From a virus, in IMG/VR virus record IMGVR_UViG_3300032288_000156, positions 1 through 25,431 of that record: DNA of 25,431 nt. One strand, given 5' to 3'. Shown one piece after another: positions 4,416-22,356 of the stretch. Within the stretch, counting starts at the first letter, position 1, and the number at the start of each line of letters is the position of its first letter. Under the pieces are notes generated by a model. It did not search any database and was not told where the DNA came from. It worked only from the letters and a program-made list of their open reading frames with translations. Made by a program: the position numbers and the translations under genes.

Positions 4416-4803
4416 AACTGAAGCAGACCTGCAAAGAGAAAAGAAAGCAATAGAATTATTTGTCAGCATTTTTAGTGGGTCATATCTAAAGTTAGACCCA
4501 AACGACATAGACTACAAGGTGTTTGATAAGGACAAGAACCTTATCGCTTACGCTGAAGTAAGAGGCAGGATTAGGTCAATAAGAGACGCATACCCGCTTC
4601 CAATCGCCGCTCGTAAATTGGTCAAACTAATTGACAAACGAATCGTTCCAATCCTGATATGGGCTTGTGATGATGGAATCATTTACGCCAAAGCAAATCA
4701 ACTCAAGGGAGAGATTAAGTGGGGAGGAAACCCTCCCCGTGATTCTGAGTTGATGGTGTATTACGATAAGCAGAAGACCATGAGGTACGTGAGGTATGTT
4801 TAA
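4405..4803 (+). CDS. Possible PD-(D/E)XK-fold protein, last gene of the plus-strand module
   Basis: A 132-aa protein, starting within the last codons of the previous gene. The segment NDIDYKVFDKDKNLIAYAEV (33-52), then RGR, has the layout of a PD-(D/E)XK core: Asp36 on one strand, a hairpin, then Glu51-Val-Arg53 in place of Glu-x-Lys. This is followed by a helix (IAARKLVKLIDKRI) and a central strand (VPILIWACDDGIIYAKA). The Lys-to-Arg change leaves activity uncertain, so it may be an inactive or atypical nuclease. Its stop (TAA 4801-4803) overlaps the stop of the convergent giant gene. A perfect 7-bp hairpin lies in its last quarter. Confidence 0.6.
   Translation: MTFETEADLQREKKAIELFVSIFSGSYLKLDPNDIDYKVFDKDKNLIAYAEVRGRIRSIRDAYPLPIAARKLVKLIDKRIVPILIWACDDGIIYAKANQLKGEIKWGGNPPRDSELMVYYDKQKTMRYVRYV
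4721..4738. other. Perfect GC-rich hairpin near the convergent gene ends
   Basis: GGGGAGG (4721-4727), a four-base loop, and CCTCCCC (4732-4738) form a perfect 7-bp stem. It lies inside the last plus-strand gene and 62-79 bases past the stop of the minus-strand giant gene. There is no T-run on either side, so it is not a classical intrinsic terminator. It could slow polymerase or protect the 3' end of the structural transcript; that is inference. Confidence 0.4.
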
Positions 4804-7800
4804 TCCTCCCCAAACTTTTTCCCACCGAATCCTCCACCGCTTTTCCTTTGTCTCTTCTTAGTGCCTTCGCCAAATCCTGAAGAACCAAAGCCATCCTCTT
4901 TAGGAGTGTAGTTGTACATCCTGTCCTTATTTGCTCTTTCCTCCTTAGCCTCTTTTTCCTTGGCTTCACGCTCTTCTTTGGTTGACTGGTACCATTCTGA
5001 CCCCTCACCAAAGTTCTTCTCATACAGGGCACGATTATAGCGCTTCAGGTCTTCCTTATTCTCGTATCCTCCAAGCAAGTCCACTTCTTTCTGTTTGCTT
5101 CTTGCAGCGGCCTTCTCGGCCTCTTTGATGCTGGAGTAGATTGAGTTGTTCACAGCTTTACGCACATCCTTGTAGAAAGGAATAAATCCTAAGTGACCAA
5201 GCACCTCCAATGGGATTCTCTCCTTCACTGTACGCTCTTCTCTTTTGATTGCATCCAGTTCTTTCTTGGTGGTCTTGCCTGTTATGATACGAGTTCTGTT
5301 TTTGTAAATCAAATCAGCCGTATTTAATGCAGGGCCAAGTGAACCTGACATACTCATAAGAAGATTAGGCAAGTTGTCGTTAGGCCGGTCTTCTCTAGGG
5401 ATTAGGGAGTAGGCAATGCCATCCTTGTAAGGGTCATACTCTCCCTCTCTCAAGAAGTCAAGATACTTTTCATTAATCTCCTCAAGACCATAGTTGATTG
5501 CAAGTTTGGTAGCATTACCGAAGTCTCTTCCAAAAAGAAGTGAAGAGAATGTACCTACAAGTGACTGGCCAATTTTTTGCATCAATGACTTCTCAGTTTC
5601 ATCCTCCTCATCGTCAAACCCAAGCAATCCCATGATTCCACTAGCCAACATTGAAGACAGCAAAGTGTACACCGTCATACGTGTAAACACAGCACCAAGC
5701 ATTGCGGCTCCTTGTTTCTTGGATAGTGAACCGTCTCCAACCAACGCATAGATAGCGGTACGTGCAGTCATGTATTCAAATATCAAGAAACGTGTCATGT
5801 AATTGTTGAAGTTGTTGAACGCCTTTGCCCATCCACTTTGATTAGGCTTCAGCGTTCCCTTCAGAATACCCATGAACGCATTGTCGGTAGCACCAGTCAT
5901 TACTGACCTTTCATCTGCCAGTTTCTTTGACTGCTCGATTGCATCCTTGTTGGCCTCCATGTAGGCTTCATTATTTTCGGCAATCTTTTTGAAGTCTACG
6001 TCATTTCCTGTAATGCTTTTGAACTCATTAGCAAATGAGCCAAACCATAAAGGTCTCATCACAATTTTATCTGGCGTAGAGATTATAGTATCTGCAGTCA
6101 GCTCAATAACATTCTTAGGCTTCTTGATTGTAAGGTTGTATATCTGTTGCATCTTGTTGAACACTGGGTTCTTCGAGCTGCTGCTTTGAATACCTGCGGC
6201 TTGATTTAGAATAGAAGTATCAACAAGTCTTCCAGACAAGGTATCTGCAGGGAAGATTCTATTTGTTTGCTTACTGTTTACATTCTCCAATATCAAAGGA
6301 GCATCGGTAGACATAATGATGTCTCGATACTTGGTACCAGTAGTAAATGCCTTAGGGTCTGCCAACAATGCAAACGATACGTTTGAGGCTAATTCAGCAG
6401 CAAACCTTCCTGTTCCAGCAAGCACAGCACGGTATCCCTGCTTACCAATGAAGTCAATTACCTCATCAGCAAATGTGTTCTGCAGGATTGAGTTGGTAAG
6501 TAGATTGGTTACAGACTCTTCAAACGCACCTTCAATTGCATTCTTGATTTCTCTTTGCTCCTTAGGTAGTCTTCCTTCTTTCTCCAAATCTGCAGTTGCT
6601 TGGTTGATTGTTCTGCGTGCAGTACGGATAGGCTCAGTCAGGTTGTAGTCTAGCAACACAAACTTGGCGCCACGCTGAGCGGATGCAAAGACATCGAAGT
6701 TCAAAGGCTTAGCACCCTTGGTTCTTGTTATCAAAGACTTCGCTCTTGTGGACGGTCTACGTGAGTTGTTGGCCTGATTAAGGAAGTCAGTAGCAGCACT
6801 CATATCAAGCGGCTCAGTGTCGTGCAACACGTTCAGGTGAACGTAGTTGTTCAACGGGTCGATTGCATCGCCACGGATGATTGCTGCAGTGTATTGCGCC
6901 TTATCTTTTAGTGACTCATTGATACCACGAATATCCTTGATGGCGTCCTTCTCCGCTTGGTTGAAAGAGTTGTATAACTTTTCAATATCAATCTGACCAT
7001 TCGTTGTGTACTGGTCAAGAATATCCTGTAGCATATTTCCATCACGCTCTCCGAATCTTGACTTGCCTTCGTCAATATGCTTGATGGTTGCTTTCAAGTA
7101 GTCGGCAGCAGGATTTACTTGCTGGCTACCCTTGTTTGATTCATACTCAAGTTGAATCATGTAGGTCATCATCTTGAACTTGGACATCAATGTTTTGTCC
7201 GGGTTAAGTTTGAATGACTTGGCAACCTTTGACTCAGCGTTCTCCAAAATGTTTTGAACCTTCTTGAGCTCAGCCTTAAAGTTTGCCTCGCCTTCAGCAG
7301 CTTTCTCAAACAACGCATTAAATATGTCCTTAGTCTTGAAGTTACCAAACACTTGGTCAATGTAGAACAATGGGTTTCTTCTTACCAATTCAGAGATACC
7401 ACCTTTCTGACTTCTGATAATAGCAGCCTTTAACTTGGAATAAAGCGCAGAGAATGATAATGGCTTGGCCGTTTTAATTGCGCCGGCAATCACCTTACCA
7501 TTATTGATAGCATTCAGTTTCTCAACCATTACCTGAGCGTAGTGAGGTAAGTAGTTATTATTGATATTGCTTGTAACCTTGAGTAGATTTTTTAAGTCTG
7601 TAAGGTTGAGCTTCATCAAGTTTTCTGGAGAAGTTTCTTTAATCAACTTAGCCAATCTCTTAGCCAAGTTTCTTTCATCCTGAGATGGAAGCCCTTCAGC
7701 ATTTACCTTTTGCTTTTGTAGGACGGAGATACTTTCATTTTTCTTTTTAGCAATCTCCTCATCAGACAATGGAGTTGGCTCAACCTGAGGAATAATGTCC

Positions 7801-10800
7801 TGCTTATACTTACGCATAAGGTCAGCATCGTCCTCAGTTATCTCACCTTCCCTAACCATGTTCTTCAAACTAGCAGCGTAGTCCAAATCACCGTCATCAA
7901 ACACTTGGTTATCTGACTTGCTGAACAACTCAGCCAATTCATCAGCCCTTGACTGCTCATTGTTGATTTCATCTAGTATGGCATCCACGTCTTTCTTAAC
8001 CACCGACTTCTCCTCAAGAGTAAGTACTGCCTCACTTGCTGAGAACATATCTAGCAACTCAAGGTAACGCTCAAGAGAGTTATCAGGGATAAGGTTTGGA
8101 TTAACTGCGAATAGTTTCTGCAATGGCAACATCAGGCCATCAGCGATACCAATCTTGGTCACAATGTTCTTGCGTGCTTTCGCTACCCTGCTGTTTGCCT
8201 TAGCAATCTTGCTGTCGTACTCAGCGTCAGCAAAAACTTTAGCCATGTAATCCACAAAGTTGGACACAGACACCTCATTAAGGAGGTTGACATTGCCAAA
8301 CTTAGCGATAATGTTTGCCGCTTGGATGGCAGTTATCTTGCCTTCCTTAGCCAGACCACGTATCTCTTCAGCCAAGTCTTTGGATACATCTCTTGACAGC
8401 TCACGAATCCTTCCTATAATTTGCAGCTTCTCCTTTCGTGATACGTTTGTAATGTCTTTTAACACGCCTATAACACGTCCAATTGATGCTGCCTTACGTG
8501 GACCAACACCCATCTTAATTCGTGCCTCACGCTCCATTATTTTGCGCTGTGCGTCAGTTGCATTTTTATATACCTCTGAGTTGCGAATCATTGTATCTAG
8601 GTTGGATACAATCTTCTTATCGGTAATTCCTCTTGATTTTTGACGAGCGATTAAAGCATCAGCCTTAGTCATCAATGCATCATACTCCTTTTGAATAGGT
8701 ACGATTTGACTTACTGCGTTGATGCCATTTACTACTTGCTTAACGGTTACACCATTGTCTTTTGCTACCTGCTTGATAGCATCAGCCAATACCATACCTG
8801 CCTCTACCAATGTCCGAATACCTTTCAGTATGTTCTTCATTATAGGCAAAGCAATGTTCACACCAAGCGTTCCTTTCTCTAGGTTCTCAATGTCTTTGAT
8901 AAGACCATCAATACCATCAAGAATCTTTTGGCCGGTGCCTTTTGATTTAGGGTCAAGTTCAAGAAGTTCATCCATCTTTCCAGCCACTTCCTCTACAACT
9001 TCCTCCTCAGTCTTTGGCTTTTGTCTGGCCTTCTCACGAGCCTTAGCCTTTTCTGCTTTAACCTCAACAGTCTTAGTTTCTTTGGCTGTTTGCTGCTGTT
9101 GCTTTTCAGCTGCTTTCTGACGCTGCTTATTTACTTGCTCAGCAAGTGCAACCTTAGCATCTCTTTCAGTATTAAACTCCTTGCCTTTATTTAACTTACG
9201 TCCATTTGAATCTTCGACAGTAAATGACAACCTGTTCTCGCCATCAGATAGTTTAGTTATTGTTCCAATAGGATTTCCATTGGCATCAGTAGCCTCAACA
9301 GTTATTGACGAAAGGAATTTGAATTTTCTACCAGCAATATCTTCTCTTGTCCCTTCCTCAAACTCAATAGCATTCTCCTTAACGTATGGCTTAGTCTTGA
9401 CATCATTTGCCGTGATAGGAGCAAGCACCTCCACTGGGGCCACTTCCTCTTGTGTCTTTGAAGACACTTGATTAATGTACTCAGTCAATGGGGCTGGCGT
9501 TCTGCCTTCGTTACCCTTGTCCCAGTTTGTTTTGTCTGCAGTATCTACCTTCTTCTTGAATGCAATTACATCATCCATGAAAGACTCAGTGAGAGTCGAC
9601 TCAGGATTTGTAAATGCGTCATAATATAGGTTGCTCAACTTCAGGGCATCTGCTCTCAGGTTGTCATCGACATTCACGTCTCTGTGAATCTCATAAAAGT
9701 AATGACCAAGACCATCTGGGATTTCCCATCCAAGTCTCTTTCTAATTTTTTCTAATCCCTTTTTAGCTGAGTTCTTCTGCTTCTGGTCCCCGGTAAACCC
9801 GGCTACACCATCTTTGGCCAAGTATCCATCGGTAGTGATTACTTGAATCTCGGCAATGATACCATTAGGAGTTCTGAGTTCAATGAGTCGCTTTGGATAA
9901 CCAAGGTTGGTATCTTCTTTTACCCTTCTCAAATCCTTGTCACCCTGAGCGACAGGATACTTTTGGTCTATTGAATTAAAGACCTTGTCTGCGTCTGCAT
10001 CGTTTTGAACAACAATGTTTACCCGAGCGCCATCTCCTAGTCTCTCAGTAAATGAGTTGTACCATCTGATAGTTTTAACAGACGCTCTCTCAGGACGCTT
10101 GATTGGGAATGGAGACAAGGAAGCATTGAGGTTCTTGATAGCATCTGCCGCTATCTTCTCCACCTCAGTCTTGGCTTCTTCATAAAGAGCCTTGTTAACT
10201 TCAAAAGTTCTCTGAACAGTAGGCTGAACATCTCTGTTCAATTCATCAAACCTGTCCTGCTCTTCTCTTGATAGTTGCTTACCTTCTTTTTGTAATTGGA
10301 TTTGTTTCTTACGTAGGTTAGCAAGCTCAGTGCTTCTAACTTCTACGTTAGTTATTGCTTCTTTGAACGATTCAAGAACGTTACTTCTATCGTACTCTCT
10401 TGTCTGCTCTTCGGTTCCTTCATTTCTGGCTCCTTGGTAAGAAGATTTTTTGATTCTAACCTCTGGCGTAAACGAGACATTAGGTCCGAGTACATCAACG
10501 GCTGACTTTTCTGTGGCGTCTGATTTTGCATCGAGGTCTCGCTTTCGTTCTTCATTTTGTTCGTCTTCATTTAGTGGTGAATCTTCAGGAAAAAATTTAA
10601 TTACAGATACTTTGATTTCATTATTGTTAATACTAAAAGCATCAACACCATTATTTTGTAGGTTAACTGACAGGTCTGCAACCTGTTCGTCAGTTATTGG
10701 TTCAGCAAATGTATAAATAATTTGCGGATAATGCATCAAGCCATTCTCATCAAACTCAGTAAGAGGGGTTCCTCGTCTTCCTTCAACGACATCTCTCTCA

Positions 10801-13418
10801 TAATTTGACTCTGACTCAAGGATAAATGCATCTTGAGAATACTTCTCAGCAAAGTCAAATAGCATCTTGCTCACAGACTCAGTGTCTGCTTGCTGGCTTA
10901 TTGACAATACCATGTTCAAGGATGGTTCAAACTTACCGTCCCATAATCCTCTCTTATCGGCACCAAATGCCACCGCTACTCCTTTTACCTTTGATACATC
11001 GTCAATTATTTCTTGCTTAGCATCGTTGAGTATCTGGGCTTCAGTTTCCTTTATCTTGTCAAGAGTCTCCTTGCTTTTCTTTTTACTGAAGTCTTTAACC
11101 AACTTGTCATATTTAAGTGACAGAGTTTTTATTCTCTTTGTTAGAGGTGATGCAGCACGAACAGTGGCAGGAGTAATCAATACAGATACATCCCTTACCA
11201 ACTTAGGTGCAGGCTCTACATCTTGACTCACTAATTCCTCCACCTCTTGAGGTGCTAGAGGAGAAACTACAGGCTCTACTTGAGGTTGAATAAACTCATA
11301 TACATTTGTAGTTTTTACTTCCTCAACCCCTGTCTCTCTATTATATACTTTGTTTTCTTTCTGACCTATTACTCTTGCGTATCCAAGGTCAGTAAGTTTT
11401 TCCCAAACTCTTAAAGCCTGAGGAGATATACCTGATGTATGCTTATCCCACTGAGTACTTTCTAAAGAATACCCTAATTCTTTTAGCTTATTACCAATTT
11501 CTATATACGCATCAAGTCCATACCCCTTTCCTCTTGGAGCGTTTTCGTCAAATCCTATTTGTACATCTGCGATATATGCTGTTCCGTCAGGAAGCACATT
11601 AGCATTAAAGTATCCGCTTTCACCTGTCGGTGTAGTTATGCTGCCTCTAAGTGATGGTCTATCTTCAGTTGGTAAAGCCTCTATATTTATTTGAGTTACT
11701 TTTGCTTCTTCTTGGACAGCTTCTTGGGGAGCGACTTGAGGTTCTGCTTGGGGTTCTCCTTGCGCCACTTCTTGGCTAACTCCGGCTGTTGGCTGAATAG
11801 GTACTTGACCTGCTGCTTGCTCTTGAATGGCATCTTCTTGTATGGGTTTAGTTTCTATTTCGTTTGCGACTATCTTGTACTTTGTTGGCTTGTATGGGTC
11901 TGGTGATTGAACTTCTTCTATTGTAAACTGAAGTCCCTTGTATGCTTTTGAAAGCATATCAGACATAGACATGGCCTGTTCCTCATTGTCTAACTCTTTA
12001 GTCATCTCCATCCTGCCAGACTCATCTCTAATAAATCCAAACTTGGAGTCTCCGTAATCAAGAATAACAGGTTGAACTATTTCCTCAGGGACATCTTTTT
12101 TAGACCCAATTAATAAACTTGGAGCCTGAACACCTGCAGCGCCAAACATACCAGCCGCGTATGCATCTAATGCTTGAGTTAAGGTTGGAGCTCTTAATTC
12201 GCCTTTAACCCCAAGTCCTTTAGCTGCACTAGACACAACTTCTTGTGCGACTTCAGTTGCTCCCTCAACCTGACTATTTACTAGTATGGTTAAAGCTCTT
12301 CTTCTTAAATCTCTTTTAATGTTGTCTAATCCAAATGCATCTAAAATCTTTTTCGCACCAAAAAGGTCTAGTGCCCCAGATATAGCGCCGCCTATTTCTG
12401 CTAACGCAACTTGGTCCTTGCCTTGTTGAATAACTTGTACAGGGGTTATACCTTCTTTCTCTGCTATTTCTTTTACGGTTTCAAGATAAATGTTTCCTGA
12501 TTCCATTGCATAACTCATACCACCACCAGTAGCTATTGCTAATGGAACTTGAGCAGCTGTTTGACCAACAGACGAACTTATGAAGTTAAGCAGGTCATAC
12601 CCATCGTTCACCTGAGTTAATGAAGATATTACATCGCTATTACTTAAATCCTTATTAAGTTTTAATGCCAACTCTATTGAGGCTTGAGTCGCTTTATTGC
12701 CTCTTGCTATTTTTTCAGCCAGTTGTTTTTTGTAATCTCCAGCCTTGTAAGTTGTTGTCCTTCCACCTCTTGGGTCGGTAAGGCTAGGCATCTCAATTAA
12801 TTCATCATCTGGAACATCGGATATTGATTTCAATCTCCTCATGTCAGATTCTACAAATTGACTTTGTTTTTGAGCTCCCTTAGCTTCCATAGCAGAAGGT
12901 ATTTGCTGGGATAAAGTTTCCCAAAACTTCTTACCAAAGCTTATGATTGGATTGGTCTCTAACTCAACTTGCTTTTGCTCAGGCTTAACAGATGATATTT
13001 GTTCTGGCAATGGCTTTCCTACCTGATAACCAAACTTAGCCATCTCAGGCTGCTTCTGCTTAGGTATGGTTACATCAGGTTCTTTCTGAGTAAATGATGG
13101 GGTCTCTTGTACAATCTGACCAGTACGTGGCTCAAACTTTGTAAGCTCCGAACCACCATCCACAAATGGTGAAACCGTATCTTTTTTTTTTACTTCTTGT
13201 GGTGCTGGTGCCTGAGCATCAAAACTAGCAGCGCCTACTCCGACCAATGTCTTGTAATCATCTAATGATTTAGCATAACCATTATTTAAAGCCAAGTTAT
13301 AGGAAGCATTAAGCGCATCTGGATTAGTAGATAGCAATTGCTTGAAGTCATCAACTGACTTCTTGTATCCATTTTGTACCGCCAGATTGTAAGATGCTAA
13401 AAGAGCCTGTTCGTTCAT
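4800..13418 (-). CDS. Giant multidomain (polyvalent-type) virion-associated protein, T7 gp16-like by position
   Basis: A 2872-aa protein. Residues 8-29 and 38-59 are two copies of an ASYNLA..NGY.KS.DD.K.L repeat. Hydrophobic stretches occur near 280-302, 416-436 and 2578-2601 (YTLLSSMLASGIMGLLGF). Residues about 590-708 look like a GNAT fold with RGKGYG at 629-634. Residues about 800-945 form a globular unit resembling the large-polyvalent-protein-associated class. Residues about 1095-1250 resemble a RelA/SpoT synthetase fold. A K/Q/E-rich coiled coil spans about 1426-1470, and the tail is Gly/Lys-rich. As the last gene of an operon after 13-, 14- and 15-like genes, it sits where T7 encodes gp16, the largest ejected core protein. 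I see no lytic transglycosylase motif. Injection with the DNA, membrane insertion and effector activity are inferences. A run of ten A (coding strand) at codons 76-79 is a possible slippage site. Confidence 0.8.
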   Translation of the reverse strand: MNEQALLASYNLAVQNGYKKSVDDFKQLLSTNPDALNASYNLALNNGYAKSLDDYKTLVGVGAASFDAQAPAPQEVKKKDTVSPFVDGGSELTKFEPRTGQIVQETPSFTQKEPDVTIPKQKQPEMAKFGYQVGKPLPEQISSVKPEQKQVELETNPIISFGKKFWETLSQQIPSAMEAKGAQKQSQFVESDMRRLKSISDVPDDELIEMPSLTDPRGGRTTTYKAGDYKKQLAEKIARGNKATQASIELALKLNKDLSNSDVISSLTQVNDGYDLLNFISSSVGQTAAQVPLAIATGGGMSYAMESGNIYLETVKEIAEKEGITPVQVIQQGKDQVALAEIGGAISGALDLFGAKKILDAFGLDNIKRDLRRRALTILVNSQVEGATEVAQEVVSSAAKGLGVKGELRAPTLTQALDAYAAGMFGAAGVQAPSLLIGSKKDVPEEIVQPVILDYGDSKFGFIRDESGRMEMTKELDNEEQAMSMSDMLSKAYKGLQFTIEEVQSPDPYKPTKYKIVANEIETKPIQEDAIQEQAAGQVPIQPTAGVSQEVAQGEPQAEPQVAPQEAVQEEAKVTQINIEALPTEDRPSLRGSITTPTGESGYFNANVLPDGTAYIADVQIGFDENAPRGKGYGLDAYIEIGNKLKELGYSLESTQWDKHTSGISPQALRVWEKLTDLGYARVIGQKENKVYNRETGVEEVKTTNVYEFIQPQVEPVVSPLAPQEVEELVSQDVEPAPKLVRDVSVLITPATVRAASPLTKRIKTLSLKYDKLVKDFSKKKSKETLDKIKETEAQILNDAKQEIIDDVSKVKGVAVAFGADKRGLWDGKFEPSLNMVLSISQQADTESVSKMLFDFAEKYSQDAFILESESNYERDVVEGRRGTPLTEFDENGLMHYPQIIYTFAEPITDEQVADLSVNLQNNGVDAFSINNNEIKVSVIKFFPEDSPLNEDEQNEERKRDLDAKSDATEKSAVDVLGPNVSFTPEVRIKKSSYQGARNEGTEEQTREYDRSNVLESFKEAITNVEVRSTELANLRKKQIQLQKEGKQLSREEQDRFDELNRDVQPTVQRTFEVNKALYEEAKTEVEKIAADAIKNLNASLSPFPIKRPERASVKTIRWYNSFTERLGDGARVNIVVQNDADADKVFNSIDQKYPVAQGDKDLRRVKEDTNLGYPKRLIELRTPNGIIAEIQVITTDGYLAKDGVAGFTGDQKQKNSAKKGLEKIRKRLGWEIPDGLGHYFYEIHRDVNVDDNLRADALKLSNLYYDAFTNPESTLTESFMDDVIAFKKKVDTADKTNWDKGNEGRTPAPLTEYINQVSSKTQEEVAPVEVLAPITANDVKTKPYVKENAIEFEEGTREDIAGRKFKFLSSITVEATDANGNPIGTITKLSDGENRLSFTVEDSNGRKLNKGKEFNTERDAKVALAEQVNKQRQKAAEKQQQQTAKETKTVEVKAEKAKAREKARQKPKTEEEVVEEVAGKMDELLELDPKSKGTGQKILDGIDGLIKDIENLEKGTLGVNIALPIMKNILKGIRTLVEAGMVLADAIKQVAKDNGVTVKQVVNGINAVSQIVPIQKEYDALMTKADALIARQKSRGITDKKIVSNLDTMIRNSEVYKNATDAQRKIMEREARIKMGVGPRKAASIGRVIGVLKDITNVSRKEKLQIIGRIRELSRDVSKDLAEEIRGLAKEGKITAIQAANIIAKFGNVNLLNEVSVSNFVDYMAKVFADAEYDSKIAKANSRVAKARKNIVTKIGIADGLMLPLQKLFAVNPNLIPDNSLERYLELLDMFSASEAVLTLEEKSVVKKDVDAILDEINNEQSRADELAELFSKSDNQVFDDGDLDYAASLKNMVREGEITEDDADLMRKYKQDIIPQVEPTPLSDEEIAKKKNESISVLQKQKVNAEGLPSQDERNLAKRLAKLIKETSPENLMKLNLTDLKNLLKVTSNINNNYLPHYAQVMVEKLNAINNGKVIAGAIKTAKPLSFSALYSKLKAAIIRSQKGGISELVRRNPLFYIDQVFGNFKTKDIFNALFEKAAEGEANFKAELKKVQNILENAESKVAKSFKLNPDKTLMSKFKMMTYMIQLEYESNKGSQQVNPAADYLKATIKHIDEGKSRFGERDGNMLQDILDQYTTNGQIDIEKLYNSFNQAEKDAIKDIRGINESLKDKAQYTAAIIRGDAIDPLNNYVHLNVLHDTEPLDMSAATDFLNQANNSRRPSTRAKSLITRTKGAKPLNFDVFASAQRGAKFVLLDYNLTEPIRTARRTINQATADLEKEGRLPKEQREIKNAIEGAFEESVTNLLTNSILQNTFADEVIDFIGKQGYRAVLAGTGRFAAELASNVSFALLADPKAFTTGTKYRDIIMSTDAPLILENVNSKQTNRIFPADTLSGRLVDTSILNQAAGIQSSSSKNPVFNKMQQIYNLTIKKPKNVIELTADTIISTPDKIVMRPLWFGSFANEFKSITGNDVDFKKIAENNEAYMEANKDAIEQSKKLADERSVMTGATDNAFMGILKGTLKPNQSGWAKAFNNFNNYMTRFLIFEYMTARTAIYALVGDGSLSKKQGAAMLGAVFTRMTVYTLLSSMLASGIMGLLGFDDEEDETEKSLMQKIGQSLVGTFSSLLFGRDFGNATKLAINYGLEEINEKYLDFLREGEYDPYKDGIAYSLIPREDRPNDNLPNLLMSMSGSLGPALNTADLIYKNRTRIITGKTTKKELDAIKREERTVKERIPLEVLGHLGFIPFYKDVRKAVNNSIYSSIKEAEKAAARSKQKEVDLLGGYENKEDLKRYNRALYEKNFGEGSEWYQSTKEEREAKEKEAKEERANKDRMYNYTPKEDGFGSSGFGEGTKKRQRKSGGGFGGKKFGED
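9452..9467. repeat. Palindromic hairpin repeat, copy 2 (inside giant gene)
   Basis: GTGTCTTTGAAGACAC, identical to the core of the copies at 2835-2850 and 24902-24917. The stem is GTGTCT/AGACAC with a TTGA loop, and the flanking bases match 17 of 18 positions of the longer copies. On the minus strand it is read as coding sequence (VSSKTQ), unrelated to its reading in the helicase gene (VFEDT). Confidence 0.7.
13182..13191 (-). other. A10 homopolymer in the giant gene (possible slippage site)
   Basis: On the coding strand, ten consecutive A follow GT, giving GTA AAA AAA AAA GAT (V76-K77-K78-K79-D80). Adding one A would place a TGA after about 16 further codons. Losing one would open a frame of a few dozen codons. 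Either would yield a short product holding mainly the two N-terminal repeats. Slippage is possible at such runs but unproven here. Confidence 0.4.
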
Positions 13419-13430
13419 GTTCTATGTTAA

Positions 13431-15239
13431 TCAATTAAATTGAGAAAAAACTCCCTCGCCAGCAGTACTGTTTGCTTTAATAAAATTCTGAAGACCTTCT
13501 TTTGCAGTTGGTATTTCAGCTGGACTAAGGTTTGCGTTATATGTAAATGTCTCACCAGTTGGCGCAGTAACAACAACGTCATTACTTGCTCCAAAGAACC
13601 CTGTATTTTCTTCAACCTTAAACCCTGCAGGCAATAATGACTTCAAATTTTGAGAAGATTGCTCAGACTTAATTGTAAAGATACTATCAGGTACGTTAAC
13701 AATTACAGGTGCAGCAGCGGGTCCTTGTCTGGTTGATTTAACATTTACCAACTCTTCAGCAGCAACATTACCGAATCCTTCCCCTCCACCACCAGCTCTA
13801 AAGGCTTGGTCTCTATCAACAATACCATGCAACTCAACACCAAGCCCTGAGAACTCTCTCAAAGGTATTGGATTTTGATTAGCATCAAGATAATCAATTG
13901 TTCTATTTTTAACAGGGTTATCATATTGTAAAGTAATCTTACCGTTCTGACTCATGTCAATACCCAAAAGACCTTGTTGCTGTGCCATTGGAGTTCCTAA
14001 TAGAATATCAGCGGCCGCCTTCTTCTCTGCCACAGTCTTACCTGTGTACAACTGATTCCAGTATCCTGCTACATCTCTAGCGCTTCTAGCTTCCGATGCG
14101 GCTTTTCTCACATATTCAGGAGTATATTGAACTTGTTCCTTTTGAATTGGAACAATCTCTCTCTTAGCATCTAGTTTGCCTAAGATTATTTTCTTTACAT
14201 AATCTCTTGCCTCTTGTTCTTGCTCTTTGTAATTAGGAGCACTTTCATCTAAGGTTGGCAACCCAGTCAATGGGTCCATCTTCAACAATAATTTTCCCTT
14301 ATCTTTTGCAGCCTCCTCTTTACTCCAAGTGTATGACTCAGCACTGTAGTTCCCTGTGTTCTCAGTCAATACTGACGATATGTGATATGGGTTTGAAAAA
14401 TACCCATTGATAGTTTGCTCAATAGCATCGTTGAACTTCTTTACTGGAGCTCCAAGTTCAGGATACAATGGATTACCATTCTTATCCTTCTTATCATACT
14501 CACCTGCTATCGCACCATATCCTATTAGCTTTGTGATTGAACCAGCACCCATAGTGGTTGCTGCCTTATATATGAACTCACTATCAACACCTAATGAATC
14601 AACCGCTTTGGTTACATTTTCGTCCAACTTAAATGCTGGTATATTTTGAAGCAATTGCCCTTTCAATACATTTACAGGAGAAGTCTTTTTTAATACTCTA
14701 ACCTGTTCCCCATTTATCATTTTTGTCTCATATATGGACATATTGATATTAGGGTTATACGGGTCAATATCTATTTTGGCATTAGCAAAATCAGTATAGG
14801 ATTCTACCTCAGCCATATTTGCTATGTTAAGGGCTTGAATCTCTCCTTTTTGATACAGGTCTATTGTTGCTGCCTTTTTTTCCTGAAGTATTTTTTGTAA
14901 TTCAAATACAGTATTGGTACCTGTTTTATAGTTCTCTCTTCTTAATGTGTAATCTCTTTCGCTCATAATACCATTCTTCAGTAGTCGATAGTCGATTAAC
15001 TGCTGAGCCATCATATCGTGAGCAAAATTATTTACAGTAGCATTACCATCTTGCCAAGTACCTTGGGGAGCATTAACAAGTCCTTTTACATCTATCTGAT
15101 ATGCTTCATCAATCGCTGCCTTTTTTTCTTCACGCAATCTTGCTTGCTCAGTAAGCATATCAGATAAACCCTTGCCAACCTCTGCCCAGTTTACCTGACT
15201 CTCAGCGTTACGTTCTGCGTATTTATAGTATGTTGCCAT
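13431..15239 (-). CDS. Internal virion protein candidate, T7 gp15-like by position
   Basis: A 602-aa protein, soluble and largely helical in its first 400 residues. It begins with a charged helical region (NWAEVGKGLSDMLTEQARLR, about 17-36) that includes the KKAAIDEAY block, and ends in a beta-rich segment (about 480-602). A Gly-rich loop, FRAGGGGEGFGN, separates the two near 480-490. No enzymatic motif is seen. It sits between the 296-aa hydrophobic-headed protein and the giant protein, the position and rough size of T7 gp15 (747 aa), which forms the tube of the ejection apparatus. Start: ATG 15239, with only 11 bases after the upstream gene's stop. The role is inferred from order, not from sequence identity. 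Confidence 0.6.
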   Translation of the reverse strand: MATYYKYAERNAESQVNWAEVGKGLSDMLTEQARLREEKKAAIDEAYQIDVKGLVNAPQGTWQDGNATVNNFAHDMMAQQLIDYRLLKNGIMSERDYTLRRENYKTGTNTVFELQKILQEKKAATIDLYQKGEIQALNIANMAEVESYTDFANAKIDIDPYNPNINMSIYETKMINGEQVRVLKKTSPVNVLKGQLLQNIPAFKLDENVTKAVDSLGVDSEFIYKAATTMGAGSITKLIGYGAIAGEYDKKDKNGNPLYPELGAPVKKFNDAIEQTINGYFSNPYHISSVLTENTGNYSAESYTWSKEEAAKDKGKLLLKMDPLTGLPTLDESAPNYKEQEQEARDYVKKIILGKLDAKREIVPIQKEQVQYTPEYVRKAASEARSARDVAGYWNQLYTGKTVAEKKAAADILLGTPMAQQQGLLGIDMSQNGKITLQYDNPVKNRTIDYLDANQNPIPLREFSGLGVELHGIVDRDQAFRAGGGGEGFGNVAAEELVNVKSTRQGPAAAPVIVNVPDSIFTIKSEQSSQNLKSLLPAGFKVEENTGFFGASNDVVVTAPTGETFTYNANLSPAEIPTAKEGLQNFIKANSTAGEGVFSQFN

Positions 15240-15250
15240 TAATGTTTATT

Positions 15251-16141
15251 TTATTTCCCCATACTGGTTACAGCAAAAGGATTGTACCCTTGCTTGAGCG
15301 ATTCTAAAAAATTATCTTTTTGAGTCTGAAGCCCACCTACTGTTTGCTGCCTTAATTTTTTTAGTGTATTAGCAGGGACGGTAGTTAGAAATGCTTGAAA
15401 TTCATCTGGCTTCATGGTCCCTACTTTACTAAAGTCAACGCCATCAACAACACCCTTACTAGCTAATGTTTGCTGTATGCCAGCTTGATTCATTCCAAAG
15501 TCTTTAGTCAAGGTATCTGATAGTTTTTGAGTCTGTCTTCCTACAGCAGTCTTTTCAAATGTAGGAGCTTGGTCAGCCAACTGAGTTCCTAAACTAGTTA
15601 CTCCTTCCATGCCTTGTTGTAAGGCTTGTGCCTGCAACTCTTGAGCATTTGCAGCAGCAAGTTGAGCACCTGCAACTTCTTCAAGGTCCAACTGAACTCC
15701 AATGTCTCTAAGCCTTCCTTCCTCTTGTGCGCTAAGCATTTCAAGTTGCTGTAATTCTTGACCCATTGCACTTCTAATTCCTGCCTGTCCTTCTTGCTGG
15801 GCCATCTGAATACGACCTGCGGTAGCCGCTGCCCCTCTTTCACTTTCAACTCCGGCCTGAATAGCCTGAGCACCCTGAGAAAGTAGAGCCTCTCTTTGTA
15901 ATTCAAAAGGTTCTTTCTGAATAGATAGCTTGTCAAATACATTAACCTCTAGTTTTTTACGAGCCTCCTGCATAGCCTCATCAGCATCTTTCTGTGCTTG
16001 CTGCATAGCCTTCTTTTGCTTGCCAGCTTGAGCAAATGACAGACCTGCTGTTGCGGCTGTAGTAGCCACGCCAACCCCTGCGGCAATTGTTGATGCTGTT
16101 ATTGCGGTTCCTGCGATTGCAGCTGATGTTATTACTGCCAT
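15251..16141 (-). CDS. Internal virion protein candidate, T7 gp14-like
   Basis: A 296-aa protein. The first 35 residues are hydrophobic and Ala/Thr/Gly-rich (ITSAAIAGTAITASTIAAGV, about 4-23), a likely membrane-active segment, followed by a basic turn GKQKKAMQQAQK and about 150 residues of Ala/Gln/Glu-rich helix with coiled-coil character. The C-terminal 90 residues are more ordered (AGIQQTLASKGVVDGVDF and on). A short hydrophobic head plus a long A/Q-rich helix is typical of T7 gp14-class proteins, which are ejected first and form a channel in the outer membrane. It lies one base from the GNAT-like gene upstream, and its position before the 602-aa and giant genes supports the call. Confidence 0.65.
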   Translation of the reverse strand: MAVITSAAIAGTAITASTIAAGVGVATTAATAGLSFAQAGKQKKAMQQAQKDADEAMQEARKKLEVNVFDKLSIQKEPFELQREALLSQGAQAIQAGVESERGAAATAGRIQMAQQEGQAGIRSAMGQELQQLEMLSAQEEGRLRDIGVQLDLEEVAGAQLAAANAQELQAQALQQGMEGVTSLGTQLADQAPTFEKTAVGRQTQKLSDTLTKDFGMNQAGIQQTLASKGVVDGVDFSKVGTMKPDEFQAFLTTVPANTLKKLRQQTVGGLQTQKDNFLESLKQGYNPFAVTSMGK

Positions 16142-16142
16142 A

Positions 16143-16553
16143 TTATAGAAGTTTTATCATTTCATTTGTGTATGAATCACCTTTAATGTAGCCAAGTTCC
16201 TCGTAGGTTCCTATAAGGTTTTGGCTTTTTATTAGAGCGTAGACATACTTACTGCCAGTATTCTTGCATATCTCAGTCAACGCTGACACCAGTAACTTAA
16301 TGGCGTTTTTTCTTTGTGGCTTCTTGTTGTATTCCTTGCTGGATATTATCCAGTCAACCCAAGCCACTTTGGAATTAGTAAGGTACATATACCCTGCACA
16401 AACTGGTGTCTCACCGTCATAAACTATGATTCCACCTTTGCCATTGTTAGGAAGGAAGTCCTTTTGTGGAGGCTCCCATCCCCACTGCTTCCACCAACCA
16501 ACAAGAATGTCCTCGTAGTCCGTGTCCTGCAGTTCTCGTATATATAGTCCCAT
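16143..16553 (-). CDS. GNAT-like acyltransferase fold protein, T7 gp13-like
   Basis: A 136-aa protein with a single GNAT-like fold: an N-terminal strand-helix LYIRELQDTDYEDILVGWWK, a central beta pair GGIIVYDGETPVCAGYMYL (about 40-58), strand VAWVDWIISS (63-72), basic loop KEYNKKPQRKNAI (73-85) where a GNAT has its CoA-binding loop, helix LLVSALTEICKNTG, and the classic GNAT ending YVYALIKSQNLIGTYEELGY. The CoA loop lacks a clean R/QxxGxG/A, so activity is doubtful. T7 gp13 is also about 138 aa, GNAT-like as I recall it, and sits just before gp14. The match in size, fold and position makes it a probable virion morphogenesis protein rather than a metabolic enzyme. Confidence 0.75.
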   Translation of the reverse strand: MGLYIRELQDTDYEDILVGWWKQWGWEPPQKDFLPNNGKGGIIVYDGETPVCAGYMYLTNSKVAWVDWIISSKEYNKKPQRKNAIKLLVSALTEICKNTGSKYVYALIKSQNLIGTYEELGYIKGDSYTNEMIKLL

Positions 16554-17874: not shown

Positions 17875-20800
17875 TTAAGTTGGTTCTTCGCAGCCGCAAC
17901 AAGCGTCTAGGCTGCTGGTTGGTGAATAACATAGTACTACTGATGGTGCCGGCTCAGGGTCGCACTCACAGCAAGCATCCAGCGCACTGACGTCTGAGTA
18001 GCACAATTCGATTGGTAATGAATTTCTGTAATCCCAAATCAGATAAAGGTAATTACCAGTATTAGGAACTACAAATGAACCTGAGTAAACTCCAGCGCTT
18101 CCGGTTATAGGTGATACCACTGTAGATGCTGCAAGCAATGACGATATACCAACAGAAGTGTTTGGATATAATGTATTACTACGAACATATCTGAACTTAT
18201 CTTGCTCCAATACAAAATTAAATGTATCAGGATTAATTTTATTCGATATAATCTGTAATGTAGAACCATTTATTGGAATACCTCCAAATCCCTGAGGACC
18301 TGATATGGTATCATACTGGGATACCACAGGGCTTGAATCATCAAAAGCAAATATAACAGCATTAGATTGCAATGGTGAAACAAATGCTCCAGCGGTGTAT
18401 CTGTACTGATTATGAATTGATTGCCCTGAATCAACAACGCTAGTCAATGTTACCTTGACAATAGTCAATGTCTGTGGAACTGGACAGTTAGGGAATACAG
18501 TCAATTCAAGCGGGTCACTAGCAACTATCGTTACAGTCGCCGTATCTACATTATTCTTGTCCTTATTGAATTGCAAAGTTCCTGATGTAGTCACAAGACC
18601 AGAAGTCACAGTGTCTCCATCGTAAGTTACTGATATAGTAAAGTCAGCGGAAGAGCCAGCAGGTACGGTATAGTTGAAGTTTGTTATTCCAATTGGCTGC
18701 CCTAAGTCAACGCAATAAGTAACAGTGTTACCAGTAGGCACAGTGAATGACTGAGATACCCCACAAGCAACACATCTTAAAGGTATAGGCAACTTCTCAT
18801 CGTTTGTTGACAAAACGTATTCATTTAGATACGGGTCGTAACCACCAAGCTTCTGAGTATCGAATGACTGAATAAATTCATCACGGAACCAAGTACGCAT
18901 ACCTAGTTCAGATATAACAATCAATTGGTCTCCCTTTAGATTAAGCACCGCTCCACGCTTCACGTCAGTAAAGAACCTGTCAGGTCCCCACTGCACGTAA
19001 CTCTCAGGGTTAGCGCTAATACCATACTTCTCAAGTCTAGCAATCTGATTGCCCAACACCTCAGGTACAGAAGCAATAACGCCTCCACCAGTAGAGTCTG
19101 AGATAAGGTTCTTGCTTGCAAGCACGTAAGAGATTTTGTCCTCCTGTAGAACAAGGATGTCAGTCTGTCTTCCATCCATGATATAGATGTCTCCAAAGGA
19201 TGGCTCCAACACTTTAAAGTTGATTAATCCTAAGTTGAACTCATTGAGCTTATTTACATTTGACTCAGCGCTATAGACACCACTGTACGTAATGTCAGCA
19301 AATCTATCTGCAGCCTTGTAGTCCTGAGCAGACACGCTAGTAACTCTGTTACCAAAATTGAAGGAAGCCCCTACAATTGAATCACGAATCTTGTAACTTT
19401 CTGCTCCATTACCGAATGAGAAACAGTTAAAGAACTTAGTGTCAACAATAGCAGGAGTACCAGCACCTACGTTTTGATTTTGGATATTCCCCTGATGGTT
19501 TCCGTTTACGATAGCGAAAGACATTTCATTCTCAAAGAACACGTCAGGCAAAGCGTCTGATGGAAGCGTCTCAAAGATAATGCTATTGTCTGCACGGAAT
19601 ACAGTAATGCTAACCTGAATGTTTGAGTCTCTATTACGTGGTTTAAACCCAAATCCTGTGCAGGACTCGGTGCCGGTAACCAAGAAGAAAAGCTCATTGG
19701 TAGTGGTATTTCTGTAGAACTTGTAATAGTTTGTGCAAACAGCTGTACTTATGGTTGGAGGAGTAACATCTGTAAAGCCTTCAAATACGTTATTAATCTC
19801 ACAAGCATTATCGCTAACAACCTTAATGCTATCGTTTAAGTATTGCTCAATATCTTCTCCAACAAACCACTGGTACATATTGGGATATGAGTTTGCTGAT
19901 ATGAATGTTTTCTCAAACGTATTTCTTCTCTCCTCACAATCACTTTCTGCTCCTGCTCTGAATTGCTTTATTGACATAACAATCCTACTTCCTGAAGGCA
20001 CATCATAATCTAAATGCGTCCAAGTAGAAGGGTTACCAGCTTCAGTGCCGGGTATATTCATTGGGTATCTCAAGATAGGATAATCTCCTCCTTGTCTTTC
20101 CTTAACCGTAATTACTCCCGGGGCAATAATTGCATTTTCTTCCTGAACAATGTTGAAACTATTAGGATTAATCTTGGCATATACCCCAGCCGGCACAGGA
20201 ATAAATTCAGTAGGGTCATCCTCTCTTGGTATTTCAAGAAATCCTGAAGGCTGTGAAGACTTCTCAAGAATAGTAGCATACACGAAATTTTGTGTTGGAC
20301 CTTCTGAGTCAGCCTTTACAATAAGACGGTCACCGGTCTCAACTTTTCTTGCGTTCTCGCCTTCAAGTAAGAAATAAGCACTATTGCTGTTCGGGTCCTC
20401 AAAAAACAAGTTGCAATAAATCGTCTCGTAATTCTCTTCATCAGGCTTGATAACAAACTTGTATCTTGTTGCCCATACTGGAGGCTTCTGTGTAGCAGGT
20501 ATTGTGACCTGTATAGAGTTCTTCTTAGAAGACAAACCGCAAGGGATATGTTCTGTATTGTTTAGACTAACTAAAGCCGTTGTAGCCCTATTAAAATCAT
20601 CCATATAGACAATACCAATCTCGTAGTCTCTATTGCTATGGAGACTTTGAGTATTACCTATCTCTTGAAACGTAGCCTCAGAGAATGATACACTATAGTA
20701 CTCGTAAGCAATTTGAGTAGGCGATGAAGGATTGTCTACATATCTCATTGCTGGAATCTGAAGACCAATCTCATCACTTGACGGTGAAGTCACAATACCA

Positions 20801-22356
20801 ATAGGTTGGTTTATACCACTGATTCCACTAGCTGTTTTATCTAACGCTCCTAAGTTAGTAGGTAGAGCACAGTTAAATTGGTCAGTAAAAGTAATCCCAT
20901 TACAAGAGTTTGCTACAGTCTGGATATTAAATACTGTTCCGACAGCATCTTGAAACTCTGTACTAGTAGCCAGTTGATATACTGATATGTAATCCTTTGA
21001 TAAGAAAAACGCAAAATTTAATCTAATGTTCTCACTAACCTGAGTAGGAAACGGCGTGTCTCCAGACCACTGGTCGTGAGTTAGTGTCAAGCTCAAATTA
21101 AATGCAGAGCCCTCAACTAAATCTTTACCAGTTAAATCAATATACACAATTGAATCTGGAACCGTTACTGCTCCATCAATAGAGTAAGAACCTGACTCAA
21201 GAGTTGTTGTTGTAGTAGTAAGACCAATCTCAGTAGACACTAATGAAGTGCTATACTCAAACTTTATAGGTTGACCTTGTGAGTCAATTAGGTCATATCC
21301 TTCAACGTAGTTACCATACATTAATCGGTTGCCCATAATCGTTTGGGCCTTAGCAAAACGTGGCACGTTATCGTATAGCCTCAACAATTCTGACTCTGAA
21401 AGAACAGTAAATATCTTGCTATTTGTAAATGTGTATTGCTCCTCAGTATTGTCAGTCAATCCTAAGATTTGCTTATCCAACTTCTCAATTACACGGATGA
21501 TGTTTCCATCAGCCTTTTTAAATAAAAGGTCAATACCAACTACAAGCGGTCCGCCTGTGTTATAGGTGATGATTGCTGAGTTAAAGAAGTTGGTCATTCC
21601 CTCATTGAGGAAACTGTCAATGCTAAAGTTAAATGCCTTTGGTGCAAACGCAGGAGCAGACCACTGTGAGGTGGCACTGTACTCTCCGTCAGCATATTTG
21701 TATCTGTAAGCAAAGCAAATAAAGCGAGTCTCCAAGTAGTTCTCTTGACCATTGTTGACTATTGGCTGTACTGCCGGTGCCTCCACCGGTGGCTTCTTAA
21801 TTACCAACAAAGACTCAGCGCTTACTGCATCAATGTTAGAAACAGGATTTGGATAGCTCTTAGTGACGTTAATTACTCTTGGAGGATTATAGTCATCGGT
21901 AAAGAACAAAAGCTTGTTATCCAATATGTCTACCCCTGTGATGAGGTATTTCGGATTGAAGTTCAACGTGGTGTTGATACCACCCCCATCATTAATAGAT
22001 ACAACGTGATACGTAAGAATGTTTGTATTTACGTTAAAAGAAACTATCATGTCCAATTTACCAGTAGCACCTACAGGGAAATTGGGGTCGTGAATAAACC
22101 AATAAACAGACTCAGTAGCGCTGTTCTGAATAGCACCTATACATCTAGCGGAAGTACTAAGAAGTGTTCCGTTAATATATGCTAAAGAGGTCAGAGGCAA
22201 GTTCCCCTTGGTGTTTTCAATAACGCCTATTTCGGACTGTTCAGTTGAACCCATCCTTACGTTCATAGCGTCAATATATTCACCTTCAGGAAGCAGTCGT
22301 TCATCAACGACTTTATTCATCCTACCCGCTACAAAGTTTCTTGTAAGTTTTGTCAT
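17875..22356 (-). CDS. Large tail hub / muzzle-like protein
   Basis: A 1493-aa protein. The N-terminus NFVAGRMNKVVDERLLPEGE (6-25), then YIDAMNVRMGSTEQSEIGVI, is a block I recall from large podovirus tail proteins in Bacteroidetes phages, described as stabilisation or muzzle proteins and comparable to P22 gp10 and T7 gp12. Repeated beta-strand units run through about 1100 residues, and the segment around 1070-1165 (EDKISYVLASKN, WGPDRFFTD, RTWFRDEF) looks like propeller blades. After about 1190 come Ig-like modules with C1195-C1198 (CVACG). The protein ends in two CYSxxSxLDACCxC repeats (1452-1465 and 1476-1489). It would form the distal tail hub contacting the ring proteins encoded just upstream. 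Exact homology cannot be shown by eye. Confidence 0.7.
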   Translation of the reverse strand: MTKLTRNFVAGRMNKVVDERLLPEGEYIDAMNVRMGSTEQSEIGVIENTKGNLPLTSLAYINGTLLSTSARCIGAIQNSATESVYWFIHDPNFPVGATGKLDMIVSFNVNTNILTYHVVSINDGGGINTTLNFNPKYLITGVDILDNKLLFFTDDYNPPRVINVTKSYPNPVSNIDAVSAESLLVIKKPPVEAPAVQPIVNNGQENYLETRFICFAYRYKYADGEYSATSQWSAPAFAPKAFNFSIDSFLNEGMTNFFNSAIITYNTGGPLVVGIDLLFKKADGNIIRVIEKLDKQILGLTDNTEEQYTFTNSKIFTVLSESELLRLYDNVPRFAKAQTIMGNRLMYGNYVEGYDLIDSQGQPIKFEYSTSLVSTEIGLTTTTTTLESGSYSIDGAVTVPDSIVYIDLTGKDLVEGSAFNLSLTLTHDQWSGDTPFPTQVSENIRLNFAFFLSKDYISVYQLATSTEFQDAVGTVFNIQTVANSCNGITFTDQFNCALPTNLGALDKTASGISGINQPIGIVTSPSSDEIGLQIPAMRYVDNPSSPTQIAYEYYSVSFSEATFQEIGNTQSLHSNRDYEIGIVYMDDFNRATTALVSLNNTEHIPCGLSSKKNSIQVTIPATQKPPVWATRYKFVIKPDEENYETIYCNLFFEDPNSNSAYFLLEGENARKVETGDRLIVKADSEGPTQNFVYATILEKSSQPSGFLEIPREDDPTEFIPVPAGVYAKINPNSFNIVQEENAIIAPGVITVKERQGGDYPILRYPMNIPGTEAGNPSTWTHLDYDVPSGSRIVMSIKQFRAGAESDCEERRNTFEKTFISANSYPNMYQWFVGEDIEQYLNDSIKVVSDNACEINNVFEGFTDVTPPTISTAVCTNYYKFYRNTTTNELFFLVTGTESCTGFGFKPRNRDSNIQVSITVFRADNSIIFETLPSDALPDVFFENEMSFAIVNGNHQGNIQNQNVGAGTPAIVDTKFFNCFSFGNGAESYKIRDSIVGASFNFGNRVTSVSAQDYKAADRFADITYSGVYSAESNVNKLNEFNLGLINFKVLEPSFGDIYIMDGRQTDILVLQEDKISYVLASKNLISDSTGGGVIASVPEVLGNQIARLEKYGISANPESYVQWGPDRFFTDVKRGAVLNLKGDQLIVISELGMRTWFRDEFIQSFDTQKLGGYDPYLNEYVLSTNDEKLPIPLRCVACGVSQSFTVPTGNTVTYCVDLGQPIGITNFNYTVPAGSSADFTISVTYDGDTVTSGLVTTSGTLQFNKDKNNVDTATVTIVASDPLELTVFPNCPVPQTLTIVKVTLTSVVDSGQSIHNQYRYTAGAFVSPLQSNAVIFAFDDSSPVVSQYDTISGPQGFGGIPINGSTLQIISNKINPDTFNFVLEQDKFRYVRSNTLYPNTSVGISSLLAASTVVSPITGSAGVYSGSFVVPNTGNYLYLIWDYRNSLPIELCYSDVSALDACCECDPEPAPSVVLCYSPTSSLDACCGCEEPT

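What the first reader, a model, noticed from the sequence alone, without database searches (positions are those of the whole stretch)
9690..10135. RelA/SpoT-like synthetase segment inside a giant ejection-type protein
Residues about 1095-1250 of the 2872-aa protein follow the order of a (p)ppGpp synthetase fold. A basic/aromatic helix (RASVKTIRWYNSF) precedes GDGARVNIVV with Asp1129 where RelA/SpoT has DxxGxR. Next come a GY motif (Tyr1174, NLGYPKRLIEL), EIQVIT with Glu1190 and Gln1192 (the EIQ strand), and GHYFYEIHR near 1239-1246. If real, the phage may carry an alarmone-synthetase-like or toxSAS-like enzyme into the cell with its DNA, which would be unusual. The fold match is by eye; activity could be lost.
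Basis: partly seen in the sequence, partly recalled or inferred. Interest (0 to 1): 0.7.

Follow-up and report, generated by a model that had tools for sequence, protein, structure and literature searches.

The report
Alarmone-synthetase domain in giant phage protein
A giant protein of a crAss-like Bacteroidota phage, probably packaged in the virion, carries a well-preserved enzyme domain closest to the bacterial toxin Tas1, which makes growth-stopping alarmone nucleotides, and related phages swap this domain for other cargo in the same protein.

Summary
Residues about 1066-1280 of the 2872-aa protein (window about 9579-10223, minus strand) form a RelA/SpoT-superfamily synthetase domain. A 36-row profile finds Tas1, the type VI (p)ppApp synthetase, at E=4.4e-42 and classical GTP pyrophosphokinases at 1e-6 to 1e-2. 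An AlphaFold2 model (pLDDT 94) has Tas1 as its best PDB match. Lys1107, Lys1115, Asp1129, Arg1132, Tyr1174, Glu1190 and Gln1192 are invariant in all 36 rows and align with the catalytic residues. dN/dS is 0.05-0.15 for close pairs.

The protein ends an operon containing a crAss-type muzzle gene. It is a mosaic: the C-terminal half is constant, the middle is exchanged. A 600-aa cassette (721-1320) ending in the synthetase occurs in 11 of 36 non-redundant relatives; some others carry ADP-ribosyltransferase or metalloprotease domains. No alarmone hydrolase or integrase was found in relatives' records.

Alarmone synthetases in phage polyvalent and MuF proteins are already described. New here are the Bacteroidota crAss-like setting, the cassette swapping, the missing immunity gene, and an acceptor-site motif (GYPKRLIE) matching neither the ATP nor the GTP signature. 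Activity, product and delivery are inferred, not shown.

The parts
4800..13418 (-). 2872-aa giant polyvalent protein, last gene of the minus-strand structural operon
   Evidence: Single open frame. C-terminal part matches phrog_32588 E=2.4e-89. Follows the muzzle and internal-virion-type genes. Distant Elemovirus counterpart annotated 'structural protein'.
9579..10223 (-). Tas1/Apk-like alarmone synthetase (SYNTH) domain, residues about 1066-1280
   Evidence: Profile match to Tas1 E=4.4e-42. AlphaFold2 pLDDT 94.1. Foldseek top hit 6ox6_A E=1.1e-8.
10065..10103 (-). syn1: IKRPERASVKTIR (1106-1118), donor-ATP phosphate-binding Lys1107, Lys1115, Arg1118
   Evidence: Lys1107 and Lys1115 invariant in 36 rows. 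K/+8 K/+3 R spacing as in FaRel2 K66, K74, R77 (PMC11782079).
10023..10034 (-). syn2: D1129-G-A-R1132, Mg-binding Asp and Apk-type Arg at D+3
   Evidence: Invariant D and R in 36 rows. Aligned with Tas1 D306 and R309.
9879..9905 (-). syn3 (acceptor loop): LGYPKRLIE, residues 1172-1180
   Evidence: GYPKRLIE invariant in 17 members of the window's clade. Neither GxN (Apk) nor SxH (RSH).
9834..9854 (-). syn4: A-E1190-I-Q1192-V-I-T, catalytic Glu/Gln strand
   Evidence: Glu and Gln invariant in 36 rows. Aligned with Tas1 E361 and Q363.
9681..9707 (-). GHxxYExxR motif (1238-1246), shared with Tas1 GHKYYEDWR
   Evidence: Gly1238 and Tyr1242 invariant, His1239, Glu1243 and Arg1246 nearly so. Present in Tas1.
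9459..11258 (-). Exchangeable cassette, residues 721-1320: companion domain of unknown fold (about 739-1009) plus the synthetase
   Evidence: Conserved at 38-100% per 60-aa block in 11 synthetase-bearing relatives, with sharp edges at about 720 and 1320. The companion domain is always found with the synthetase in this phage group.
4803..9221 (-). Constant C-terminal half, residues about 1400-2872
   Evidence: Mostly 46-80% identical in relatives that share little or nothing of the middle.
13149..13418 (-). N-terminal repeat motif, residues about 1-90
   Evidence: Shared with relatives whose residues 100-700 are unrelated.
17875..22356 (-). crAss-type muzzle (tail tip) protein, 1493 aa: context
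   Evidence: Pfam crAss_MUZ E=1.4e-10. phrog_14478 virion structural protein E=3.3e-234.
15251..16141 (-). 296-aa virion structural protein: context, T7 gp14-like position
   Evidence: phrog_13764, head and packaging, E=1.1e-12. T7 comparison is by gene order only.
13431..15239 (-). 602-aa protein between the 296-aa protein and the giant: context, T7 gp15-like position
   Evidence: phrog_35506 E=2.4e-18, function unknown. Role by gene order only.

Best explanation
The segment is a real, probably active pyrophosphokinase of the Tas1/Apk branch of the RelA/SpoT superfamily, carried as one exchangeable cargo domain in a giant ejection-type polyvalent protein of apparently virulent crAss-like Bacteroidota podoviruses. 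The giant protein is probably packaged with the smaller internal proteins, pushed through the muzzle ahead of the DNA, and refolds in the cytoplasm. There the domain would transfer pyrophosphate from ATP to the 3'-OH of an acceptor, most likely a purine nucleotide, possibly a tRNA end, and so depress host metabolism early in infection. Shown: homology, fold, intact and selected catalytic residues, cassette swapping. Inferred: activity, acceptor, packaging, delivery, host effect.
For: Fold and family. Catalytic residues invariant in 36 rows; mapped to Tas1 and to FaRel2. Purifying selection, dN/dS 0.05-0.15 in close pairs. Cassette edges and exchange, with ADP-ribosyltransferase, LPD23 and metalloprotease domains in relatives' variable regions. 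Position after muzzle and internal-virion-type genes. Elemovirus counterpart called a structural protein. crAss001 stores and is thought to eject large cargo proteins: PMC10172136.
Against: No biochemical test and no virion proteomics for this phage group. The acceptor-loop motif GYPKRLIE departs from both known signatures, so the product could be something else. No alarmone hydrolase was found to protect the producing cell, which is puzzling if the domain is active when made. The 'structural protein' label on the Elemovirus record may rest on similarity; no paper with proteomics was found.
Confidence: 0.65

Rival explanations
1. The domain keeps the synthetase fold but is catalytically dead, serving as a structural or nucleotide-binding module of the giant protein.
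For: The acceptor loop is atypical. Low dN/dS would also follow from a structural role.
Against: The donor-site lysines and catalytic residues are invariant across 36 rows down to 22% identity. The domain is dispensable to the protein: absent from 25 of 36 non-redundant relatives.
Confidence: 0.15
2. It is an antibacterial or inter-phage competition toxin like MuF-Apk2, protecting an infected or lysogenic cell's territory, with immunity encoded elsewhere.
For: Nearest characterised relatives, Tas1 and Apk2, are antibacterial toxins. The swapped alternatives include an ADP-ribosyltransferase.
Against: No HD_4 alarmone hydrolase in 12 relatives' records and no small immunity-like ORF pair beside the gene, whereas the MuF-type phage PHB04 has a hydrolase next to it. 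No tyrosine integrase in 11 relatives' records, so lysogens are unlikely.
Confidence: 0.12
3. The domain acts in the producing cell late in infection, or antagonises a host alarmone-based or toxSAS defence, rather than being delivered by the virion.
For: The gene lies in the structural operon and delivery itself was not shown. Host defences such as CapRel use the same chemistry.
Against: It is embedded in a protein whose constant part and gene position look like a virion ejection protein.
Confidence: 0.1

Closest known systems
Tas1/Apk1 (Pseudomonas aeruginosa type VI effector, PDB 6ox6)
   Same: Best sequence and fold match (E=4.4e-42; target TM 0.77). Same order of syn1, DxAR, GY, EIQ and GHxxYExxR.
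   Different: Acceptor loop GYPKRL instead of GYSGVN. About 23% identity. Carried in a phage giant protein, not a secretion-system effector; no immunity gene seen.
Apk2 MuF (p)ppApp toxins of temperate phages
   Same: Phage structural-protein fusion to the same kind of domain (PMC12226406, PMC11699363).
   Different: Apk2 is a C-terminal domain on MuF beside immunity genes iapK and aph1, in prophages. Here it lies mid-protein in an ejection-type giant, with no hydrolase or integrase found in relatives.
RelA/SpoT domains in phage polyvalent proteins (Iyer et al. 2017, PMC5512222)
   Same: Same concept: alarmone synthetase module in a multidomain phage protein family that also uses ART, metalloprotease and LPD modules.
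   Different: The passages found name spirochaete and epsilonproteobacterial (pro)phages. The Bacteroidota crAss-like group and its cassette swapping were not seen there.
FaRel2 / CapRel tRNA pyrophosphokinases (toxSAS)
   Same: Same catalytic fold and donor-site residues.
   Different: Weaker fold match than Tas1. No YXXY/pZFD antitoxin domain was recognised in the window protein.

Membership tests
RelA/SpoT-superfamily synthetase (SYNTH) fold | Significant profile and fold similarity to solved synthetases | tested here: met
RelA/SpoT-superfamily synthetase (SYNTH) fold | Donor-site basic residues, Mg-binding Asp, acceptor-loop Tyr, catalytic Glu/Gln | tested here: met
   K1107, K1115, D1129, Y1174, E1190, Q1192 invariant in 36 rows.
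RelA/SpoT-superfamily synthetase (SYNTH) fold | Passes the Pfam PF04607 gathering score (a curation threshold, not a biological feature) | tested here: not met
   13.5 bits against a cut-off of 27. 20 of 36 rows match at E<=1, best 1.6e-6.
Tas1/Apk adenosine 3'-pyrophosphokinases | Arg at D+3 in syn2, no Arg after EIQ in syn4, GHxxYExxR | tested here: met
   DGAR, EIQVIT, GHYFYEIHR.
Tas1/Apk adenosine 3'-pyrophosphokinases | syn3 GxN signature | tested here: not met
   KRL in GYPKRLIE, invariant in the 17-member clade.
Tas1/Apk adenosine 3'-pyrophosphokinases | Makes (p)ppApp | not testable with these tools
   Needs an enzyme assay.
Canonical RSH (p)ppGpp synthetases | syn3 SxH and Arg after EIQ | tested here: not met
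   KRL and VIT instead.
MuF polymorphic toxins (Apk2) | Adjacent immunity genes including an HD-type alarmone hydrolase | tested here: not met
   None in 12 relatives' records; PHB04 positive at 1.2e-22. Some records are fragments, so absence is not proved.
Phage polyvalent proteins | Large multidomain protein with exchangeable enzymatic modules known from other polyvalent proteins | tested here: met
   ART-PolyVal, LPD23 and SprT-like in relatives; mosaic alignment.
Phage polyvalent proteins | Delivered into the host with the DNA | not testable with these tools
   Gene position only.

The most novel reading that the evidence does not exclude
Virulent Bacteroidota crAss-like phages inject, within their ejection protein and before any phage gene is expressed, a pyrophosphokinase with a new acceptor specificity, as one of several interchangeable host-takeover enzymes, without encoding immunity to it.
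Probability: 0.25. Interest if true: 0.75.

Novelty: new variant of a known kind. Interest (0 to 1): 0.52.

Why it matters
Alarmone chemistry is best known as a bacterial stress signal, an interbacterial weapon or a defence against phages. A virulent phage that brings its own synthetase in the virion would use the same chemistry for attack at the first moment of infection. The exchangeable slot in a conserved ejection-type protein also gives a way to find other injected phage enzymes, by reading what replaces the synthetase in sister phages. Crassvirus-type virions carry large cargo proteins, so a cargo domain with a testable enzymatic activity is useful.

Tried and rejected
Chance resemblance: rejected by profile and fold searches. 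Relatives in named phage genomes: tblastn of the window domain against 50,697 phage records gave none; only a distant MuF-type hit came through a relative. Hydrolase or antidote in the same phages: PF13328 search negative in 12 relatives' records and no paired small immunity-like ORFs beside the gene. Lysogeny: no tyrosine integrase in 11 relatives' records. Companion domain 725-1060: no Pfam family above cut-off, no PDB sequence relative for that part, and only insignificant ferredoxin/ACT-like fold hits. Proteomics proof that the Elemovirus giant is a virion protein: not found in the papers held.

Full report
Observation. On its own the segment 1060-1290 gives weak database matches, but the top ones point the same way: Pfam RelA_SpoT E=0.093 and Tas1 (6ox6) E=0.014, with the Asp, GY, EIQ and GHxxYE motifs aligned.

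Relatives and fold. The domain was followed in IMG/VR. An 8-row profile finds Tas1 at 1.2e-18. A 36-row profile finds Tas1 at 4.4e-42, then GTP pyrophosphokinases 2be3 (8.6e-7), 3l9d (8.8e-6) and YwaC (0.003), ribosome-bound RelA (0.007) and the exported synthetase SaEAS (8vx3, 0.012). AlphaFold2 on that alignment gives pLDDT 94.1 and pTM 0.88. Foldseek against the PDB ranks Tas1 first (E=1.1e-8, target TM 0.77), followed by CapRel, the B. subtilis small alarmone synthetase 1 and Rel. In the viral library the best matches are a siphovirus protein named Tas1 and several large proteins named RelA/SpoT, ART-PolyVal-like or DdrB-like from uncultured phages. The fold assignment is settled.

Active site. 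Lys1107, Lys1115, Asp1129, Arg1132, Gly1173, Tyr1174, Gly1186, Glu1190, Gln1192, Ala1201, Lys1202, Gly1238, Tyr1242 and Tyr1266 are invariant in 36 rows, with His1239, Glu1243 and Arg1246 nearly so. Against Tas1, the residues Lys1107, Lys1115, Asp1129, Arg1132, Tyr1174, Glu1190, Gln1192, Lys1202, His1239, Tyr1242 and Glu1243 fall on K284, K292, D306, R309, Y345, E361, Q363, K373, H403, Y406 and E407 in chain-sequence numbering. FaRel2 uses K66, K74 and R77 for ATP phosphates, D90 for Mg, Y128 (catalytically important) and E145/Q147 at the adenine (PMC11782079); the order matches and the syn1 spacing is the same. dN/dS is 0.05-0.15 for close pairs. The likeliest reading is a working enzyme.

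Acceptor. Apk enzymes carry GxN after the GY of syn3, and RSH enzymes carry SxH (PMC12226406). The window clade has an invariant GYPKRLIE in 17 members, which is neither, while syn2 and syn4 look Apk-like. The product therefore cannot be read from the sequence. That paper also reports that swapping syn motifs did not change specificity, so the motif is not decisive either way.

Setting. The window holds a crAss-type muzzle gene and several virion structural genes. Named relatives of the muzzle are flavobacterial: Elemovirus, Cellulophaga phi19:3-type phages and others, and the closest is an uncultured podovirus, MW202828. The giant gene comes last in the structural operon, after a 296-aa virion structural protein and a 602-aa protein, an order like the T7 internal core genes (from general knowledge). 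A distant Elemovirus counterpart is labelled structural protein, but no proteomics paper for it was found. In crAss001 large cargo proteins sit in capsid and tail and are thought to be ejected partly unfolded (PMC10172136). Packaging and ejection here are inferred from these facts.

Cargo swapping. The C-terminal part was found in 43 viral loci at 51-99% identity of the best segment, and the middle of the protein is exchanged among them. In synthetase-bearing relatives the block 721-1320 is conserved as a unit with abrupt edges. The closest relative (L066) is 86-100% identical per 60-aa block over 721-2872 but largely unrelated at 121-720. Of 36 non-redundant relatives, 11 have the synthetase and 25 do not; one of the 25 (L067) is a fragment that lacks the region. 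Three synthetase-bearing proteins are 93-95% identical in the C-terminal region to ones without the synthetase (L061/L063, L064/L059, L089/L059), so the domain has been gained or lost by recombination. Other relatives carry ART-PolyVal, LPD23, SprT-like or DUF6782 metalloprotease domains in the variable region, as expected of polyvalent proteins. A companion domain at 739-1009 always accompanies the synthetase in this phage group and has no recognised fold.

Immunity and lifestyle. MuF-Apk2 toxins come with an alarmone hydrolase and a blocking immunity protein. The MuF-type phage PHB04 found here has an HD_4 protein beside its synthetase. None of 12 relatives of the window phage, several with records of 60 kb or more, shows HD_4, none of 11 shows a tyrosine integrase, and no paired small immunity-like ORF adjoins the gene. 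This favours an infection-time effector of a virulent phage over a lysogen's competition toxin, with the caution that some records are fragments and an unknown antidote could be missed.

Known versus new. Iyer and colleagues described RelA/SpoT domains in phage polyvalent proteins and MuF fusions and proposed host shut-off (PMC5512222). Apk2 activity is established for prophage MuF proteins (PMC12226406; PMC11699363), and the Apk1-like family is known with several export modules, MuF among them (PMC12691689). The finding is therefore a new variant of a known kind: a distinct clade of the domain, in a crAss-like Bacteroidota phage group, with natural cassette replacement and no visible immunity.

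Noticed in passing
L045:11083-13348 (Bordetella phage PHB04, MF663786.1): A protein next to the portal gene carries the same synthetase-type domain, and an HD_4 alarmone hydrolase lies two genes downstream (annotated bifunctional (p)ppGpp synthetase/hydrolase): a toxin-immunity layout as in Apk2/Aph1.
   Followed up: partly
L070:3815-8518, L079:2717-8626, L086:3383-7579: Sister giant proteins carry ART-PolyVal (L070, L079), LPD23 and SprT-like/DUF6782 metalloprotease domains in the exchangeable region.
   Followed up: partly
window 10392-11204 (minus), residues 739-1009: Companion domain of unknown fold that always travels with the synthetase in this phage group; it might be an in-cis inhibitor. 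Not tested.
   Followed up: partly
window 11259-13058 (minus), residues 121-720: Largely different in the nearest relative (L066), which is otherwise 86-100% identical per block from 721 on: a second exchange region.
   Followed up: partly
L093:7755-8990 and L094:7497-8510: Chitinophagales and Ignavibacteriales MAG contigs hold the domain in short proteins (411 and 337 aa, the second ending within the domain), with no window structural genes within the fetched 16 kb: possibly decayed prophage remnants.
   Followed up: partly
window 16143-16553 (minus): Weak GNAT acetyltransferase match (E=0.0043) in a small gene placed among virion genes and kept in relatives.
   Followed up: no
L004:9545-10765: The synthetase-bearing frame is interrupted by a stop inside the domain in this contig; sequencing error or real decay not distinguished.
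   Followed up: no
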